Translations under genes and position numbers: made by a program
Origin: a virus
IMG/VR virus record: IMGVR_UViG_3300032083_002332
Coordinates: 1-27,341 of that record
DNA: 27,341 nt
Strand: one strand, 5' to 3'
Shown here: piece by piece, positions 2,987-13,572 of the stretch
Numbering within the stretch: position 1 is the stretch's first letter
How the letters are laid out: each line of letters opens with the position of its first letter
The notes under the pieces: model-generated
Databases searched by the model: none
Told to the model about the DNA's origin: nothing
What the model saw: the letters and a program-made list of their open reading frames with translations, nothing else

Positions 2987-4639
2987 ATGGCTAATACATT
3001 TATATCAACTAGCATAGCTACGGGTCTCGTTATTGAGGCTGCTCACGTTACACAATCCGCAGATGCTTTTACAGGTACCGAAGCATATGATATTACTATA
3101 TCAGGTTCCTTAGACATAAATAATGCTCCTATAACTAATTTAACAGCATCAGGTAATATAAGTGCAAGTGGTGATATTACTGGTAATACTGGTTCATTTC
3201 AGCATATAAACCTTCCTCAAGGAGCAGCTATAAAATCACTTCCTGGTGGTAATGTTGAAATCATATCTGAAGATGGGGCATTTTTACAAATTACTGATAG
3301 CTTTATTTTTGATAACAATGGAGCAACCTTCGCTGTAAACGCTCAAGGAGATGTATCTGATATTAGACATATAACAGCATCTGGTAATATAAGTGCAAGT
3401 GGTGATATATTTGGAGATAGAATTTATTCAAATAATATTCAAGTTGTAAGACATGTAAGTAATACTACATTTCTAGGTAAAACAGGTGTATCAACTAACA
3501 TACTTGGATCTATAACAGCATCAATTATAAGTGCAAGTGGTGATATAATAGGAGCAACCTTTGGAGATTCCTCAGGAAATATAATATTTTCAGGTAATGT
3601 AAGTGGTAGTGGAACTAACTCTTCATATTTTGGAGATGAATATAATGCGCATGGTGGAGATGCAAATTCAGGATTTACTTTACTATCTTTAGGTGCTAAA
3701 CCAAGTATACATGCCTCAGGAGCTTCTCTTGTAATAGGTAATACTACTAACTCAACACAAACAGGTATTGATTTAATAGGTGAAGTAACAGCATCTGGTA
3801 ACATAAGCTCAAGTGCAATTATAGAAGCTGGAACAATTCAATCTAATGGTACATCAACAGCTAAAACAAGAATAATTATTGACCCAGGAACTGGGAATGG
3901 AGCACAGTTGGAAATGTCATCAGCTGGAAATCTAGCAATAGCTACTGATGAAGGAGGTACACTAACATCTACTACTTTTCTTAGTAATAATGTTATAGCA
4001 TCTAATAATATAAGTGCAAGTGGAGAAATGGGAGCCGATTCTCTTAGAGTAGAAAATCGTGCATCAGGAGTTACTGCTGATGTAATAATATCAGGATCTA
4101 CATTTGATGGAGATTCGAGAGATGCACAAATTATATACCCCAATCATGGACTACATTTTAATAGTGACAATGGTACTCATAATCATGTATTGGCATTAGC
4201 AAGTAATGGTGTTGGTATAAGAAGGCAACCTGCTGATGCTAATAATGCTTTAGAGGTATCTGGCAGTATTCAAGTAATAGATGGTGATATATTTGGAGCT
4301 ACTAATATTACAGCATCTGGTCATGGATTATTTCAAGCAGGTAAACCTATTATTACACATACCTCTTCTCCTATTTCATCTTCTTTGGCTAATGCTGGGA
4401 AATATCATATAGTAGGAGGTACATTAACAGCTTCTATAGTTTTAGATAGTAATGCTCCCGTAGGTGCTGAATATGAATTTTTCCAAACATCATCAGCGGG
4501 TCAATTCTTATTTGAATCTGCTTCAGGTACAACAGTAATATCCAAAAACGGAAGTTTAAGATTGGCTCAACAGGGTTCATCAGCAGTACTTAAGAAAGTA
4601 TCCACTACTACTTTCCATTTAATGGGTGACTTAACATAA
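2987..4639 (+). CDS. Repeat-rich tail fibre / adhesin protein (module 1)
   Basis: The 550-residue product has a low-complexity, Ser/Gly/Asn/Ala-rich make-up typical of trimeric phage fibres. An imperfect unit ITASGNISASGDI recurs at about residues 53-64, 130-141, 177-187, 268-279 and 337-348, with a partial copy near 442. Repeats are spaced by beta-prone segments that contain short GD or GDI turns. The C-terminal 100 residues are repeat-free (AGKYHIVGGTLTASIVLD to the end, finishing FHLMGDLT) and may be a trimerisation or tip domain. It begins a unit of three tightly packed genes with a LamG-like protein downstream. A receptor-binding or fibre role is inferred from composition and context; no enzymatic motif is visible. 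Confidence 0.65.
   Translation: MANTFISTSIATGLVIEAAHVTQSADAFTGTEAYDITISGSLDINNAPITNLTASGNISASGDITGNTGSFQHINLPQGAAIKSLPGGNVEIISEDGAFLQITDSFIFDNNGATFAVNAQGDVSDIRHITASGNISASGDIFGDRIYSNNIQVVRHVSNTTFLGKTGVSTNILGSITASIISASGDIIGATFGDSSGNIIFSGNVSGSGTNSSYFGDEYNAHGGDANSGFTLLSLGAKPSIHASGASLVIGNTTNSTQTGIDLIGEVTASGNISSSAIIEAGTIQSNGTSTAKTRIIIDPGTGNGAQLEMSSAGNLAIATDEGGTLTSTTFLSNNVIASNNISASGEMGADSLRVENRASGVTADVIISGSTFDGDSRDAQIIYPNHGLHFNSDNGTHNHVLALASNGVGIRRQPADANNALEVSGSIQVIDGDIFGATNITASGHGLFQAGKPIITHTSSPISSSLANAGKYHIVGGTLTASIVLDSNAPVGAEYEFFQTSSAGQFLFESASGTTVISKNGSLRLAQQGSSAVLKKVSTTTFHLMGDLT
3143..4322 (+). repeat. Degenerate ~36-bp coding repeats (ASG units)
   Basis: Copies lie at 3143-3178, 3374-3409, 3515-3547, 3788-3821 and 3996-4030, with a partial one at 4310-4322. 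Each has the core ACAGCATCTGGTAATATAAG followed by TGCAAGTGGTGATAT; the first two differ at only two positions. All are in the same reading frame, so they encode protein repeats. Their DNA-level conservation could also allow homologous exchange between fibre genes; a related copy lies at 8877-8911 in the second fibre gene. Confidence 0.75.
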
Positions 4640-4643
4640 TCAA

Positions 4644-5366
4644 ATGAGTAAAATAGGACCCATAGCACAATCAGATACTTCCATTATAACTGATGGGTTA
4701 GTATTCAATATGGACTTTTCTAAGTTTGCATGTTATCCCAGATCTGGAACAACATGTACAGATTTAAATGCATCAATAGATGGCACATTTACTAATGGTG
4801 CTTCATTTACTTCAGATGATTTAGGTGCATTTGTGGGAGATGGAGTAGATGATCATATAAATTGTGGAAACAATGCAATTTTCCAAAGTTTTCCATTAAC
4901 AATTGAAGCATGGGTTTTCTGTGATACTGATAAAGATAGAAATGCCATATTAACAAAAGGACGATCATCAGGTAACGCGGGTGATAGAAATTTAGACATT
5001 ATCTGGATTGATACTACTAGAACTAATATGGATTTTATAGTAAGTGATGGATCTAGTTTTGTTGTAAACTTACAAGCTACTAAACCATCAGCTGGGGCCT
5101 GGCACCATATAATAGCACAGTGGGATGGTACAACTAATTCTAATACAGCTAAACTTTTTACGGATACGGTTTTAGCGGGCCAAACCACTGCTACAGGCAC
5201 AGGATTTGCAACTAATCTTAATGTTTTTATAGGTGGACAACATCCCAGTAACGCTAATAGAACTTGGGATGGTAAAATTGCTGTAATTAGAGCTTATAAT
5301 AGAGTTCTTACCACGGATGAAATATCTATTAATTATAATGCATTAAAAGAAAGATTCGGATTATGA
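4644..5366 (+). CDS. LamG/concanavalin-A-like lectin domain protein (module 1)
   Basis: The 240 residues form one laminin-G-like jelly-roll (LamG_3 type). Visible landmarks are GLVFNMDFSK at the N-terminus, AFVGDGVDDHINCGNN, LTIEAWVFCDTD, AGAWHHIIAQWDG, KLFTDTVLAG and the closing strand plus helix GKIAVIRAYNRVLTTDEI followed by NYNALKERFGL. Such domains bind glycans in many phage tail proteins. No signal peptide or membrane segment is present, as expected for a virion protein. It follows the fibre gene by four bases and overlaps the next gene by ATGA. A glycan-binding tip or decoration of the adjacent fibre is the likely role; the ligand cannot be read from sequence. Confidence 0.8.
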   Translation: MSKIGPIAQSDTSIITDGLVFNMDFSKFACYPRSGTTCTDLNASIDGTFTNGASFTSDDLGAFVGDGVDDHINCGNNAIFQSFPLTIEAWVFCDTDKDRNAILTKGRSSGNAGDRNLDIIWIDTTRTNMDFIVSDGSSFVVNLQATKPSAGAWHHIIAQWDGTTNSNTAKLFTDTVLAGQTTATGTGFATNLNVFIGGQHPSNANRTWDGKIAVIRAYNRVLTTDEISINYNALKERFGL

Positions 5367-8027: not shown

Positions 8028-8516
8028 ATGCCAGTATTAGATCCAAACGAAATATTTTTTACCGCATTTGAACCGAAACAACAGAATAGGTTTATAATGT
8101 TTATAGATGGGTTTCCGGCTTATCAAATAAAAGGAGTAGGTGCAATTAGTGTAACTCAGGGAACTGTAGCTCTTAATCATATCAATATTCAAAGATATGT
8201 GAAAGGAAAAACAGTTTGGAATCCTATTACATTTACTTTATTTGATCCTATCACACCATCAGGTGCACAAGCGGTAATGGAATGGGTTCGTTTACATCAC
8301 GAATCAGTAACTGGTAGAGATGGTTATTCTGATTTCTATAAGAAAAATCTTACCTTTAACGTTTTAGGTCCAGTAGGAGATATTGTTTCCGAATGGGTTA
8401 TTAAAGGTGCTTTAATTACCGAAGCTTCATTTGGTGATTACAATTATGATAATGCGGATGCTGCTCAAGAAATTACAATGACTGTACAACCAGATTATTG
8501 TGTATTGAATTTCTAA
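8028..8516 (+). CDS. 19: Tail tube protein, T4 gp19-like
   Basis: At 162 residues it matches T4 gp19 (163). It stacks as hexamers to make the inner tail tube. Typical landmarks are the N-terminal strand with EPKQQNRFIMFIDGFPAYQI, the KTVWNPITFTLFDPITPSGA segment, WVRLHHESVTGRDGYSDFYK and the C-terminal ITMTVQPDYCVLNF. It follows the sheath gene by 38 bases with its own promoter-like element, and is followed by a strong hairpin, so it is probably a highly expressed single-gene unit. The start is fixed by the MPVLDPNEIFF N-terminus typical of the family. The assignment is secure. Confidence 0.97.
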   Translation: MPVLDPNEIFFTAFEPKQQNRFIMFIDGFPAYQIKGVGAISVTQGTVALNHINIQRYVKGKTVWNPITFTLFDPITPSGAQAVMEWVRLHHESVTGRDGYSDFYKKNLTFNVLGPVGDIVSEWVIKGALITEASFGDYNYDNADAAQEITMTVQPDYCVLNF

Positions 8517-8540: not shown

Positions 8541-8573
8541 AATGTCCGGTATTTATTACCGGACATTTTTTTC
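8541..8573 (+). terminator. Intrinsic terminator-like hairpin after the tail tube gene
   Basis: AATGTCCGGT (8541-8550) pairs perfectly with ACCGGACATT (8558-8567) around a 7-base loop. A run of seven T follows (8566-8572, the first two within the stem). It stands out as a G+C-rich stem in very A/T-rich DNA. It ends only one or two bases before the likely start of the next gene at 8575. Confidence 0.85.
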
Positions 8574-8574
8574 T

Positions 8575-9228
8575 ATGGGAAGAGTAAAAGTTATAAAACC
8601 AGCTATACAGGATCAACCTGTAACTTTTTCTAATATTACATCTACAGGTAATGTTACTGTACAAGGAACTACTACAATTAGTGGATCCCTTAATATATCT
8701 TCTAGTGGTGATTTTACTGTTGGAGCAATAACGGCTAGTTCAATTTTAATGGACCCAGTTGAAATAAAATCAGCTGATGGGTTAGTAATAGGGGGTAGTG
8801 ATACTTTTACTACTTCGGGTCCTGTAAATAAATTTAATGTAGATAGTGCTGGTAATGTCTTAATAGGTGGTAATATAACAGCTTCTGCCAATGTAAGTGC
8901 AAGTGGAGAAATAACTACAAATGGTCTTACTAATGTAGGTTCAACCTCAACTACCTTAACATCATCGTTTACTACAACATTAAATTTTTCTACTAACAGG
9001 ATAATATCTGTTACTACAGGTTCAGCTTTATCAATGTCTATAGATACAGGTAATAGTATATTAGGAAATGTTATAATGACTGATATTTCATCTTCAGTTG
9101 GACTTCACTTAACAGGATCACAATTTAAAGTTTTAAATGGTACGTTTGACACCACCAAAAGAAATTATGTATATTACCATTATATTGGAAATGATACAGC
9201 ATTAGTTACAATCAATCAGGAATCATAA
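8575..9228 (+). CDS. Repeat-bearing tail fibre / adhesin protein (module 2)
   Basis: The chosen start is ATG 8575 (MGRVKVIKPAIQDQPVTF), giving 217 residues. The in-frame ATG at 8542 lies inside the left arm of the terminator hairpin and would add only a hairpin-encoded leader, so I reject it. The product is Ser/Thr/Gly-rich with ASG-type units (STGNVTVQGTTTISGSLNIS, then GNITASANVSASGEI), like the larger fibre protein at 2987. The C-terminal 100 residues (TTLNFSTNRIISVTTGSAL to the end) are beta-rich and may form a trimeric tip. Its stop overlaps the next ATG as TAATG. It is probably a shorter paralogue of the module 1 fibre. Confidence 0.65.
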   Translation: MGRVKVIKPAIQDQPVTFSNITSTGNVTVQGTTTISGSLNISSSGDFTVGAITASSILMDPVEIKSADGLVIGGSDTFTTSGPVNKFNVDSAGNVLIGGNITASANVSASGEITTNGLTNVGSTSTTLTSSFTTTLNFSTNRIISVTTGSALSMSIDTGNSILGNVIMTDISSSVGLHLTGSQFKVLNGTFDTTKRNYVYYHYIGNDTALVTINQES

Positions 9229-10097
9229 TGTCAATGATAGCAGCATTTTTTAGTGCAACTGCTAAAGCAGAAGCAGGAGGTACATTATTACTAGATTTAT
9301 ATGGTACTGATATTCTTGCAGCATATTCATTGAGAAAACTATCATCTACCTACTCAGGCGATGCAGTAAGGGTTCGGCGAACATCTGACAATGCAGAACA
9401 AGACATTGGATTTGATGCAAGTGGCAATCTGGATACATCCGCCTTGACAACTTTTTTAGGTAGTGATGATGGGTTTCTTGCAAAATGGTATGACCAATCA
9501 GGTAATAGTAGAGACGGTTCTCAGACAAATGCATCAAGACAAATCAGAATTGCAACAGCAGGAACTATTGAAACTAAGAACAGTTTACCGACAACTCAGG
9601 GTGCAAACAATCTCCATTTAACTATATCAGGTGTTCCAACAACATCACAGCCTATAACAACTTTTGATGTATATGCACGTTATAGTGCAGGTGGTGCAGG
9701 TACTAAAGCTACTTTAGTATCATTGGTGAATAGTAATAATTTTATTAGGAATGACTCCAAGAGATTTATGAGAGTAGGTGTACTAAGTAAGTTTGGTGGT
9801 ACTCAAATTAATACTCAAGGAGCCACAGCTCACGCAGACACAGACCTTCACGTAGTGACAAGGATGTTAAACGGTGCATCCTCAGTTGTTAGGGTAGACC
9901 AAGTTGCAGAACCAACATCAACAGGTGGTGATTGGGTAGTTACAGGTGCACAAATGGGTTCTGATACAACAATAGGAAGAAACAGTACATCAGCATATAA
10001 TGGTCAACTTTCAGAGCTGTTAATCTTTGGAGCAGATAAAACATCTGAAATAACAAATATAGAAGATAATCTTAAAACATATTATTCAACCCCATAA
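9228..10097 (+). CDS. Arabinofuranosidase-catalytic-domain-like / ConA-like lectin protein (module 2)
   Basis: The 289-residue product carries a motif series seen in many phage tail proteins related to the concanavalin-A-like fold of alpha-L-arabinofuranosidase B. It reads AAYSLRKLSSTYSGDAVRVR, RTSDNAEQDIGFDASGNLDT, FLAKWYDQSGNSRDGSQ, and near the end YNGQLSELLIFGADKTSEI before a short helix. Such proteins are often annotated as arabinofuranosidases, but in virions the fold may act only as a glycan-binding lectin; I cannot confirm catalytic residues. The DNA at about 9346-9560 is richer in G+C and uses CGG and CGA arginine codons, unlike the AGA-dominated neighbours, which suggests recent acquisition. 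It overlaps the fibre gene by one base. Confidence 0.75.
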   Translation: MSMIAAFFSATAKAEAGGTLLLDLYGTDILAAYSLRKLSSTYSGDAVRVRRTSDNAEQDIGFDASGNLDTSALTTFLGSDDGFLAKWYDQSGNSRDGSQTNASRQIRIATAGTIETKNSLPTTQGANNLHLTISGVPTTSQPITTFDVYARYSAGGAGTKATLVSLVNSNNFIRNDSKRFMRVGVLSKFGGTQINTQGATAHADTDLHVVTRMLNGASSVVRVDQVAEPTSTGGDWVVTGAQMGSDTTIGRNSTSAYNGQLSELLIFGADKTSEITNIEDNLKTYYSTP

Positions 10098-10470: not shown

Positions 10471-11220
10471 ATGTCTGAAACTAAGTTTGAATTCCCTACT
10501 GAAATAGTTGAATTACCCTCAAAAGGTTTAGTTTATCCTGAAGATAATCCTCTTTCATCTGGTCAAATAGAAATGAAATATATGACCGCTAGGGAAGAAG
10601 ATATTTTATCTAACCAAAACTATATAGAAAAGGGTACTGTAATTGATAAGTTACTTCAATCTCTTATTGTGAGTGATATAGATTATAAAGACTTAATAGT
10701 AGGAGATAAAAATGCTATAGTAATAGCAGCACGTATTTTAGGATATGGTAAAGAATATAAGTTTACTAGTAAAGGGGAAGAATTAAGTGTTGATTTATCC
10801 ACACTAGAAAACAAAGAATTAAATGAATCCCTTTATACTAAAGGACTTAATGAGTTTGCATATACCCTCCCTCACTCTAAAACTCCAATAACCTTTAAGT
10901 TTTTAACCCATAGAGATGATTTAGCTATAGATAATGAATTAAGAGGGTTAAAAAAGCTTTCTAGTAAAAATGTACCTGAATTATCTACAAGATTAAAGTA
11001 CATAATTACATCTGTTAACGGTGAAACTGATAGAGCCACTATCAGAAAATATGTGGATAATTACCTTTTAGCTATGGATTCTCGCGCATTAAGAAATTAC
11101 GTGAAGGAGATGCAACCTGACATTAACATGTCAACTACCATTATTGATTCAGAGGGTGACGAATTCACCATGGAAATCCCCTTCACGCTGAATTTTTTTT
11201 GGCCAGACGCAGACCTATAG
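10471..11220 (+). CDS. 26: Baseplate hub / tail assembly protein, T4 gp26-like (T4_baseplate family)
   Basis: The zero-frame product has 249 residues (T4 gp26 has 208). The N-terminus EIVELPSKGLVYPEDNPLSS plus IEMKYMTAREEDILSNQNYI and DKLLQSLIVSDIDYKDLIVGDKNAIVIAARILGYG is typical of the T4 baseplate-protein family. The product needed for hub assembly is thought not to remain in the finished tail. The gene lies directly before the tape-measure gene, the place where long-tailed phages keep tail-assembly chaperones. It ends with LNFFWPDADL at a TAG, but clear coding continues in the +1 frame from 11192 to 11503. A minor fusion of about 343 residues is therefore likely (see the next two entries). 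Confidence 0.8.
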   Translation: MSETKFEFPTEIVELPSKGLVYPEDNPLSSGQIEMKYMTAREEDILSNQNYIEKGTVIDKLLQSLIVSDIDYKDLIVGDKNAIVIAARILGYGKEYKFTSKGEELSVDLSTLENKELNESLYTKGLNEFAYTLPHSKTPITFKFLTHRDDLAIDNELRGLKKLSSKNVPELSTRLKYIITSVNGETDRATIRKYVDNYLLAMDSRALRNYVKEMQPDINMSTTIIDSEGDEFTMEIPFTLNFFWPDADL

Positions 11221-11503
11221 GTCTACTCTCTTTACTCAAATACATGAAATCGTATTTCATGGAAAAGGTGGCTATGATTTCCACACAGTCTACAACATGC
11301 CAATTTGGTTAAGAAAATTTATATTCAATAACATTCAAGAATTCTATAAAAAAGAAGAAGAGGAATATAGAAAAGCACAATCTAAACATAATAAGGGCAC
11401 TACTAATATAAGAATGGATGAATCTAATAAGGTAAAAATACCAGACTTTATAAAAAATAATCCAACTTATACATCAACTGTTGCAAAAAAGCCTAAGTTT
11501 TAA
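11192..11503 (+). CDS. +1-frame extension of the gp26-like protein (probable frameshift product)
   Basis: The frame opens after a TGA at 11189-11191 and runs to TAA at 11501-11503. It has no ATG until 11297, yet the codons before that ATG read as protein: RSTLFTQIHEIVFHGKGGYD, then FHTVYNMPIWLRKFIFNNIQ, then a charged EFYKKEEEEYRKAQ helix. Starting at ATG 11297 would give only 68 residues and would cut this unit in half. The natural reading is a translational extension reached from the upstream gene by a shift at the T8 run. A separate gene starting at 11297 is the alternative; a wrong T count in the homopolymer is another. Its stop is directly followed by the tape-measure promoter-like element. 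Confidence 0.65.
   Translation: MFFGQTQTYRSTLFTQIHEIVFHGKGGYDFHTVYNMPIWLRKFIFNNIQEFYKKEEEEYRKAQSKHNKGTTNIRMDESNKVKIPDFIKNNPTYTSTVAKKPKF
11193..11200 (+). promoter_or_regulatory. T8 slippery run, candidate +1 (or -2) ribosomal frameshift site
   Basis: Zero-frame codons are AAT TTT TTT TGG; in the +1 frame the same bases read ATT TTT TTT GGC. A phenylalanyl-tRNA on TTT can move one base forward (or two back) and still pair perfectly. The zero-frame stop TAG lies at 11218-11220 and the +1 frame has a stop at 11189-11191, so the overlap available for shifting is only 11192-11220. Confidence 0.55.
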
Positions 11504-11520: not shown

Positions 11521-13572
11521 GTGGCTAACTTTAAAGAACAAAGAGATCTCCTTAGAGCTATTAATGAAGAATTAGGTAAAAAAGCTAATTTAGTTAGAAA
11601 TGCTACCAAAGAAGTTTCTAAGTTGGAGTCCATAACTCAAAAACTCCAAAATGTTCAGTCTGGTATTATTACACTTACAGACAGACAAGCCCTAAAAGAA
11701 AAAGAAAGAGCTGAAGCTGCGTTGAATGCTTTAAAAGATGAGGCAGATAATCTCCAGAAACTGGTAGATACTAGACAGAAAAGCTATAGAAGTTTAACTG
11801 ATCAAGAAAAAGCTCTTTTAGCCGCAAGAAAAGAGGGATTTACAGTAGAAAAAGAAACATTAAAATTAGCCTCTAAAGAAGTAAGAATCCGAGAAGGTAT
11901 ATCAAAATCCATGGGTATTACAGGTGCCCTTGCTAAGTCTCTTAATAAAACTCTAGGTATAGATCTTTCCTCAGCTCTTAAGGATGCTGAAAAAATGGCC
12001 AGAAAAGTTAATGAAGAATTTGAGGAAAGTGATGGAGGAGTGGAAGCTCAAGCTAAAAGAGCAAAAGGTAATGCAAAAGTTTTTGGGGAACAAATAAAAG
12101 GAATAGGAGGTGCAGCATTAAAATCCATTACTAGTATACAAGGTGTACTAGGTTTATTAGCTGCAAGTTTTTTAAAGTTTAATAAAGTTAATAGGGAAGC
12201 TAGACAATTAACAGGACAGACTGCTGATAATTTTACAGTAATGAATGATTCCATTCTCAATGCAGCAGATCAGGTTAAAACTATTACTTCTCTTTCTAGT
12301 GAACTCGGTATAAACGTAAACGCAGCATTTTCAGCAGAAACAATAGCTGCAGCATCTGAATTAACCCAATTATTAGGAATTAGTGAGAAATCCACTGCTG
12401 CTTTAGCCCAAACCGCAGAAGCTTTTGGTCAGGATTTAGCACAAGCAGAGAAAGAAGCTGTAAAGCAGGTAAAAGCACTAGCAAAAAGTGGAAAAGGTGC
12501 TCTTAATTTCAAACAAGTATTAGAAGAATCAGGAAATGCTTCAGGAAGATTACAACTTACATTAGGTAAAACCCCAGGTGCCTTACAAGAAGCAGCAGCT
12601 GAGGCTCAAGCTTTAGGTTTAAGTTTAGATTCTGTAGAAAAAGTAGCAGATAGTCTATTAAATTTTGAACAATCTATATCATCAGAATTAGAGGCTGAAT
12701 TGTTAACTGGTAAGCAAATTAATTTAGATAAGGCTAGATCTTTAGCTTTAAATAATGATATAGCAGGTTTAACTAAAGAAATAGGTAATAATCAAGAAAT
12801 ATTAAATGCATTTGCGGATGGTAATAGAATCCAACAAAATGCTATAGCACAAGCAATGGGTCTTTCTGTTAATGAAATATCAGAAATGATTTTTAAACAA
12901 AAAATAGCAGAAGGTCTATCTACTGAACAAGCTGCTAAAGCAGCCAACATCAATGAGGAAGAAGCTAAAAGACTTGATATTCAAGCTCAAATGCAAAAAT
13001 CTATAGAAAAAATGACTATGGCAGCTGCCCCATTAGTAGAATCTTTTGCATCCCTATTAGGTAACGCTGAATTAATGTATGGTGTAATTGCTGCTTTAGC
13101 AGCTGTAAAATTAGGAGGACTTGTATCAAGTATAATAGGTTTAGCTACTAGTTTAGCAGCTGCAGGAGTAGGAGCTTCAGCAACCGCTAACGCATTAACC
13201 TTAGGTGTTGCCTCCGTTGCTATTATAGGAGGTATAGCTTTAGTAGCAGCCGCAGTAGGAAGAGCTAAAAATAAAGCTAAAAAAGAGGCAGAAGAGATAA
13301 AAAGCATAAAAGATGGTGTAATTGATGCACAAGGGGGACTAATGGTTAGTGGTCCTAAAGGTTCTATTTCTTTAGATAGAGAAGATACAATTATTGCCAA
13401 TAAAAATGGAGTTATAGCAGGTACTAGTTTAGGAGGTAATGGAGCAGCCAATGCTGAAATGTTATCCCGATTAGATAGGCTTATTTCTGCTACTGAAAAA
13501 GGAAGCCAAATCACTATGGATGGTAATTTAGTAGGTAAATCTATAGCTAATAATACCTCTGCACTAGGTTAA
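11521..13572 (+). CDS. Tail tape measure protein
   Basis: The 683-residue product starts with GTG (GTGGCTAAC, like the ATGGCTAAC used by other genes here). Residues 1-115 are charged coiled coil (KEVSKLESITQKLQN, RQALKEKERAEAALNALKDE). The middle is Ala-rich helix. Residues about 520-580 are a long hydrophobic stretch (AAVKLGGLVSSIIGLATSLA, then GVASVAIIGGIALVAAAVG). The end DGVIDAQGGLMVSGPKGSIS, LDREDTIIANKNGV is a signature I associate with tape-measure proteins of T4-like phages. T4's equivalent, gp29, has 590 residues. The protein sets tail length and is thought to sit inside the tube, with the hydrophobic part helping membrane passage. Its place after the gp26-like gene supports the call. 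Confidence 0.85.
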   Translation: MANFKEQRDLLRAINEELGKKANLVRNATKEVSKLESITQKLQNVQSGIITLTDRQALKEKERAEAALNALKDEADNLQKLVDTRQKSYRSLTDQEKALLAARKEGFTVEKETLKLASKEVRIREGISKSMGITGALAKSLNKTLGIDLSSALKDAEKMARKVNEEFEESDGGVEAQAKRAKGNAKVFGEQIKGIGGAALKSITSIQGVLGLLAASFLKFNKVNREARQLTGQTADNFTVMNDSILNAADQVKTITSLSSELGINVNAAFSAETIAAASELTQLLGISEKSTAALAQTAEAFGQDLAQAEKEAVKQVKALAKSGKGALNFKQVLEESGNASGRLQLTLGKTPGALQEAAAEAQALGLSLDSVEKVADSLLNFEQSISSELEAELLTGKQINLDKARSLALNNDIAGLTKEIGNNQEILNAFADGNRIQQNAIAQAMGLSVNEISEMIFKQKIAEGLSTEQAAKAANINEEEAKRLDIQAQMQKSIEKMTMAAAPLVESFASLLGNAELMYGVIAALAAVKLGGLVSSIIGLATSLAAAGVGASATANALTLGVASVAIIGGIALVAAAVGRAKNKAKKEAEEIKSIKDGVIDAQGGLMVSGPKGSISLDREDTIIANKNGVIAGTSLGGNGAANAEMLSRLDRLISATEKGSQITMDGNLVGKSIANNTSALG

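What the first reader, a model, noticed from the sequence alone, without database searches (positions are those of the whole stretch)
11192..11503. Probable programmed +1 (or -2) frameshift at T8 joining the gp26-like protein to a 100-residue extension, just before the tape measure
The gp26-like frame ends at 11220, but protein-like coding (TQIHEIVFHGKGGYDF, then VYNMPIWLRKFIFNN) continues in the +1 frame from 11192 with no ATG until 11297. T8 lies in the only overlap window and allows perfect re-pairing of TTT after a one-base slip. Lambda G/GT and many other tail-assembly chaperones use a frameshift at this same gene position (Xu, Hendrix and Duda); a shift in a T4-type gp26/tape-measure context is, to my knowledge, less described. 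A homopolymer error (7 versus 8 T) is the main rival; the complete zero-frame ending FFWPDADL argues mildly against it.
Basis: partly seen in the sequence, partly recalled or inferred. Interest (0 to 1): 0.8.

Follow-up and report, generated by a model that had tools for sequence, protein, structure and literature searches.

The report
Frameshifted tail chaperone in T4-like phages
In this marine phage, and in a very large family of relatives, ribosomes very probably slip forward one base on a run of T to make a second, longer form of a tail-assembly helper protein; T4 appears to make the same short and long pair from two separate genes (26 and 51), which would explain why T4 seemed to lack this otherwise near-universal trick.

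Summary
The gp26-like ORF (10471-11220) is joined at T8 (11193-11200) to an out-of-frame, conserved ~100-residue domain with no start codon before residue 33. A homopolymer error is excluded: all 81 relatives examined keep both frames and TTT-YTT-T, over protein identities down to 48%, and 78 of 80 IMG/VR hits to the 15-mer TTTYTTTGGCCTGAC are the same junction with both protein profiles matching. CTT-TGG variants point to +1 ribosomal slippage rather than -2 or transcriptional slippage. More distant phages keep the FF junction and the downstream domain, but shift +1 (TTT-T/C) or -1 (T-TTT-TTY: cyanophages, pelagiphage, KVP40, Aeh1 and others). T4, 44RR, RB43 and CP220 instead have two genes, short (gp26-like) and long (gp51-like); T4 gp26 and gp51 are paralogues, and the extension matches the gp51 C-terminus. 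Best explanation: a lambda G/GT-type tail-assembly-chaperone system in the T4-type tail module, with the short/long pair made by +1 shift, -1 shift, duplication or (one contig) a separate start. A review says G/GT shifting is conserved 'except T4'; another paper notes cyanophage gp51 lacks its first ~200 residues. Both would be explained. The shift itself is not experimentally shown.

The parts
10471..11220 (+). gp26-like ORF, zero frame: short chaperone product, 249 aa
   Evidence: phrog_150 baseplate hub 4.1e-9; all 33 fused relatives match phrog_150 and 12 match Pfam PF12322 T4_baseplate
11193..11200 (+). slip site T8 (AAT TTT TTT TGG): P-site TTT 11197-11199 re-pairs with TTT 11198-11200, next codon GGC 11201-11203
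   Evidence: TTT [T/C]TT T in 81 of 81 relatives; 0 of 70 Phe codons at the site are TTC in 36 representatives against 18 of 132 at other conserved Phe columns
11201..11220 (+). dual-coding overlap: zero frame (W)PDADL stop, +1 frame GQTQTY
   Evidence: open in both frames in all relatives; TGGCCTGAC kept in most
11201..11503 (+). +1-frame extension (gp51 C-terminal type domain), 100 aa plus stop; fused product 343 aa
   Evidence: hhalign probability 96% to the gp51-type domain with column-shuffle control; purifying selection; predicted helical core at pLDDT about 80 over residues 1-60, tail disordered
11521..13572 (+). tail tape measure protein, GTG start
   Evidence: 30% identity over 569 columns to the annotated Immutovirus tail tape measure protein
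8028..8516 (+). tail tube protein upstream
   Evidence: phrog_4542 tail tube 1.3e-26

Best explanation
This is a tail-assembly-chaperone gene of the T4 gp26/gp51 family that makes two proteins by programmed +1 ribosomal frameshifting. Most ribosomes read to 11220 and make the short form. [quoted passage not shown] By analogy with lambda gpG/gpGT the short form would coat the tape measure protein encoded next, and the rarer long form would bring in tail tube or hub subunits; both would leave before the virion is finished. Shown by sequence: both frames, the site, their conservation, the missing start codon, homology to gp26/gp51, gene order. Inferred: that slippage happens, its direction in detail, its frequency, and the chaperone roles.
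For: Both frames and TTT-YTT-T kept in 81 of 81 relatives and TTT TTT T in 11 of 11 readable relatives in genome contigs, even where the zero-frame tail changes to FFFPDA, FFWPS or FFWPK. 78 of 80 contigs found by the DNA pattern alone carry both the gp26 profile and the extension profile at E < 1e-3. Codon conservation at the site beyond Phe. Extension under purifying selection, including its startless part; 55 of 81 relatives have no ATG/GTG/TTG before the core motif. TTT CTT TGG variants fit a prfB-like +1 slip best. One natural exception, L040, lost the slip site (TTC TTC) and instead has the extension as a separate ORF with its own ATG. Extension homologous to the gp51-type domain. Neighbouring tape measure and tube genes. 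Comparative logic: phages with one phrog_150 gene have an out-of-frame extension at an FF-type slip site; phages with two genes (T4, 44RR, RB43, CP220) have none.
Against: No direct evidence of the fused protein. No stimulator found: SD-like motifs upstream in 5 of 36 against 16% expected; weak downstream folding (mean z -0.15 to -1.0); RNAalifold structure without covariation. The zero-frame A-site codon is TGG, not a stop or a very rare codon (6.6 per 1000; GGC 2.5). No significant fold match to known chaperones; best-probability PDB hit HK97 tail assembly chaperone 2ob9, probability 0.30, E 2.1.
Confidence: 0.86

Rival explanations
1. Sequencing or assembly error: the true run has seven T and there is one continuous ORF.
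For: Homopolymers are error-prone; the contig is from a metagenome.
Against: Every relative examined, from many assemblies and isolates, has the same two frames; the clade of the window keeps T8 in all 12 members, and the zero-frame end FFWPD is itself conserved. No close relative has one continuous ORF.
Confidence: 0.01
2. Transcriptional slippage on T7-T8 gives a mixture of mRNAs, one of which fuses the frames.
For: T7-T8 runs are within the range where RNA polymerase may slip.
Against: CTT TGG relatives (4 of 81, and several of the pattern hits) and distant relatives with TTC TTT C or TTT C have no long T run but the same frame arrangement. Might still add to the product in T8 members.
Confidence: 0.05
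3. A -2 ribosomal shift (as in phage Mu) rather than +1.
For: Reaches the same frame; T-rich site.
Against: In TTT CTT TGG members the Leu tRNA would have to re-pair with TTC two bases back, whereas +1 (CTT to TTT) is the known prfB slip (PMC10885494).
Confidence: 0.05
4. The extension is a separate protein, started by re-initiation or internal initiation.
For: L040 does this; 20 of 81 relatives have an ATG between the site and the core motif, and several -1 phages have an ATG next to the stop (KVP40, phiW-14, 121Q, P-SSM2).
Against: No ATG/GTG/TTG for more than 30 codons in the window and none before the motif in 55 of 81 relatives; does not explain the conserved slip site; T4 gp51 is a single protein holding both parts.
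Confidence: 0.04

Closest known systems
Lambda gpG/gpGT and other frameshifted tail assembly chaperones (Xu, Hendrix and Duda; reviewed in PMC5009743)
   Same: Position just before the tape measure gene; short and frameshift-extended long form from one gene; shift near the end of the first ORF
   Different: No detectable sequence homology here; lambda shifts -1, here +1; T4-type contractile tail module, and T4 is the exception the review names
T4 gp26 and gp51 (Pfam PF12322, phrog_150, phrog_634)
   Same: Same protein family; gp26 corresponds to the short form and gp51 to the long form
   Different: T4 uses two separate, divergently oriented genes and has no slip site at the end of gene 26 (GAG TTC TTT GAG)
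Cyanophage, pelagiphage and KVP40-type gp26 plus short 'gp51'
   Same: Same junction and domain order; extension in another frame at an FF site
   Different: -1 heptamer T TTT TTY instead of +1; annotated as two separate genes
prfB (release factor 2) +1 site CTT TGA C
   Same: CTT TGG variants would slip in the same way (CTT to TTT)
   Different: No stop codon in the A site and no Shine-Dalgarno-like stimulator

Membership tests
Frameshifted tail assembly chaperones (G/GT type) | gene pair lies between tail tube and tape measure genes | tested here: met
   tube 8028-8516, tape measure 11521-13572; also in Immutovirus, SP-15, LIS04
Frameshifted tail assembly chaperones (G/GT type) | second ORF overlaps the first in another frame, has no start of its own, and a slippery site lies in the overlap | tested here: met
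Frameshifted tail assembly chaperones (G/GT type) | conservation of the arrangement across relatives | tested here: met
   81 of 81, 78 of 80 pattern hits
Frameshifted tail assembly chaperones (G/GT type) | sequence or fold relation to lambda gpG or HK97 gp13 | tested here: inconclusive
   HK97 chaperone 2ob9 is the highest-probability PDB hit but E 2.1, probability 0.30; no such PHROG or Pfam match
Frameshifted tail assembly chaperones (G/GT type) | both proteins made, at a skewed ratio, and absent from the virion | not testable with these tools
   needs mass spectrometry; only hint: no PDB chain matches T4 gp51, and T4 gp26 gives only two zinc-finger hits over 13 residues
T4 gp26/gp51 family (PF12322, phrog_150) | profile match of the N-terminal part | tested here: met
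   phrog_150 4.1e-9 for the window protein, 33 of 33 relatives; PF12322 in 12 of 33 relatives, not in the window protein itself
T4 gp26/gp51 family (PF12322, phrog_150) | extension homologous to the gp51 C-terminal domain | tested here: met
   hhalign probability 96%, score 47.3 against a maximum of 17.5 in 60 column shuffles; phrog_634 matches 2 of 33 fused relatives
prfB-type +1 frameshift site | stop codon in the A site and Shine-Dalgarno-like stimulator just upstream | tested here: not met
   A site TGG; SD-like motif in 5 of 36, control 16%
Canonical -1 heptamer frameshift | extension reached by -1 slip at X XXY YYZ | tested here: not met
   extension lies in the +1 frame. Met in 12 distant relatives

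The most novel reading that the evidence does not exclude
The whole T4-type tail module uses a short/long tail-chaperone pair that is functionally gpG/gpGT. The pair is made in different lineages by +1 frameshifting, -1 frameshifting at the same FF junction, gene duplication (T4 gp26 and gp51), or a separate start. T4 is then no exception to the G/GT rule: it has two genes in place of the frameshift, and gp26/gp51 are tape-measure chaperones rather than hub components.
Probability: 0.7. Interest if true: 0.8.

Novelty: new variant of a known kind. Interest (0 to 1): 0.74.

Why it matters
A frameshift before the tape measure gene is one of the most conserved features of long-tailed phages, and a standard review lists T4 as the exception (PMC5009743). 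This evidence points to where T4's counterpart is: gp26 and gp51 are paralogues, short and long. It would also explain why cyanophage and vibriophage gp51 were reported to lack their first ~200 residues and why Aeh1 seemed to lack gp51 (PMC3037559). It gives a clear function hypothesis for proteins now called 'baseplate hub' and 'hub assembly catalyst', shows what looks like the same recoding event changing direction during evolution, and supplies a large natural set of +1 sites without stop codons or obvious stimulators. Gene callers would miss it, and so would PRFect's rule that the +1 A-site codon be the commoner one (here GGC 2.5 against TGG 6.6 per 1000).

Tried and rejected
Homopolymer error, -2 shift, transcriptional slippage and independent initiation were tested against relatives (see rivals). 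Stimulators: upstream SD-like motif, downstream structure by folding z-scores (the shuffles kept base but not dinucleotide composition) and by RNAalifold on ten close relatives; none supported. Fold search of the short form against solved structures: nothing significant; against viral predictions it returns gp26-like hub proteins such as those of SP-15 and CP220. Ten literature searches and the papers read found no description of this shift, but the 2004 Xu paper and the 2016 T4 baseplate paper are not held, so prior mention cannot be excluded.

Full report
Observation. The gp26-like ORF runs 10471-11220 and ends NFFWPDADL. Eight T at 11193-11200 are the end of AAT, then TTT TTT and the T of TGG. 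The +1 frame has a stop immediately upstream (TGA 11189-11191), is open to the TAA at 11501-11503, and has no ATG, GTG or TTG until 11297. The two frames can thus be joined only in a short interval that contains the T run. The +1 fusion is 343 aa.

Relatives. tblastn in phage records gave 8 relatives and a scan of IMG/VR gave 280, of which 80 were kept. Of these loci, the 81 that are close enough and complete enough (window included) all have TTT [T/C]TT T at the junction, an open +1 frame and an extension of 72-104 aa. Zero-frame endings are mostly FFWPD. A scan for the 15-mer TTTYTTTGGCCTGAC alone returned 80 loci, 78 of which match both the gp26 profile and the extension profile at E < 1e-3; a 79th matches gp26 strongly and the extension weakly (0.0033), and one is chance. 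Of twelve relatives in genome contigs, mostly Flavobacteriales and other MAGs, the eleven in which the junction can be read show TTT TTT T, even when the zero-frame tail is altered. A homopolymer error is therefore excluded.

Selection. Among 36 representatives below 85% identity, none of 70 Phe codons at the site is TTC, against 18 of 132 at four other conserved Phe columns of the same genes. The extension evolves as protein: median dN/dS 0.22-0.23, and in the window clade pN/pS 0.19 for the stretch between the zero-frame stop and the first ATG, with 387 of 629 differences at third positions. 55 of 81 relatives lack any ATG/GTG/TTG before the core motif.

Direction. Some relatives read TTT CTT TGG. 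There the known prfB-type slip CTT to TTT works, while a -2 slip pairs badly and there is no T run for transcriptional slippage. Distant relatives slip at TTT C (SP-15, GXN1, and the huge phage LR756508). +1 ribosomal slippage is the common solution. No stimulator was found, so what raises the slip rate is unknown.

A natural exception. In L040 the Phe codons are TTC TTC, the +1 frame is closed, and the same domain is a separate ORF with its own ATG just after the gp26 stop, with an FFG repeated near its start. The domain is therefore kept even when the slip site is lost.

Wider family. The window protein matches phrog_150. In 12 more distant phages the domain lies in the -1 frame behind T TTT TTY: S-PM2, P-SSM2, HTVC008M, KVP40, Aeh1, phiM12, phiW-14, 121Q, PA5oct, Atu_ph07, RAS14 and LR756511. 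In some of these (for example KVP40, P-SSM2) an ATG next to the gp26 stop leaves re-initiation possible; HTVC008M, Aeh1 and PA5oct have no start codon near the junction by reading of those sequences. Besides Immutovirus, six further phages shift +1 (Mel-JY01, GXN1, RM378, SP-15, LIS04, LR756508). T4, 44RR, RB43 and CP220 have two phrog_150 genes, one short and one long. T4 gp26 and gp51 both match PF12322 (8.8e-64, 3.9e-52) and phrog_150; gp26 covers profile positions 14-235 and gp51 13-280. T4 gp26 still ends EFFELL but without a slip site.

Homology of the extension. Profile comparison of the +1 extensions with the gp51-type domains (cyanophage, pelagiphage, KVP40, phiM12, phiW-14, T4, CP220) gives probability 96%, score 47.3; reversed sequences give 9.0 and the best of 60 column shuffles 17.5. 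The second distant group gives 95.5%. Two fused relatives match phrog_634, hub assembly catalyst. The short form is predicted with confidence (pLDDT 88.6) and resembles gp26-like hub proteins among viral predictions; the extension is a helical core with a disordered tail. Against solved structures nothing is significant; the highest-probability hit is the HK97 tail assembly chaperone (0.30, E 2.1).

Reading. Gene order tube - gp26/extension - tape measure and the short/long logic match lambda G/GT. The review of recoding states that this shift is widely conserved 'except T4' (PMC5009743). The comparative genomics of T4-like phages reports cyanophage and marine vibriophage gp51 as missing about the first 200 residues and gp51 as missing in Aeh1 (PMC3037559). 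Both fit one explanation: short and long chaperone made by a +1 shift, a -1 shift, duplication, or a separate start. That these proteins act on the tape measure is inference from position and analogy; T4 gp26 and gp51 are listed as hub assembly chaperones in PMC3004832.

Limits. No experiment; IMG/VR sequences are related to each other, so counts are not independent; the representatives and matched control columns address this only in part. The pattern scan fixes the slip motif by construction, so it tests only whether the motif marks this junction. Two key papers are not held. The claim of novelty is therefore for the literature that could be searched.

Noticed in passing
L040:4738-5118: Relative that lost the slip site (TTC TTC) and carries the extension as a separate ORF with its own ATG and a repeated FFG junction.
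   Followed up: yes
L286 (Aeromonas phage Aeh1, NC_005260.1 118822-119747): Aeh1, reported to lack gp51, has the gp51-type domain in the -1 frame behind GAT TTT TTC GAC TGA with no ATG/GTG/TTG before its core.
   Followed up: yes
L278, L279, L280: P-SSM2, S-PM2 and KVP40 records annotate the extension as a separate short gp51 gene; it lies in the -1 frame behind T TTT TTC.
   Followed up: yes
L091:2947-3786: Atu_ph07 hub protein weakly matches phrog_1854 PmgB-like (E 0.0048); P1 PmgB lies before the P1 tape measure gene and has been proposed as a tape measure chaperone (PMC9024508).
   Followed up: no
L018, L025, L027, L041, L052 and others, about 24-30 bases before the slip site: Many relatives have a purine-rich GGGGAGGAG-like stretch well upstream of the slip site; too far for a prfB-type stimulator, possibly only coding.
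   Followed up: no
window 4644-5366 and 9228-10097: Two genes interleaved in the tail module that look like LamG-type lectin domains by eye, one between the tube gene and the chaperone gene.
   Followed up: no
window 2987-4639 and 8542-9228: Two proteins rich in repeats of the type ASGNISASG, fibre-like.
   Followed up: no
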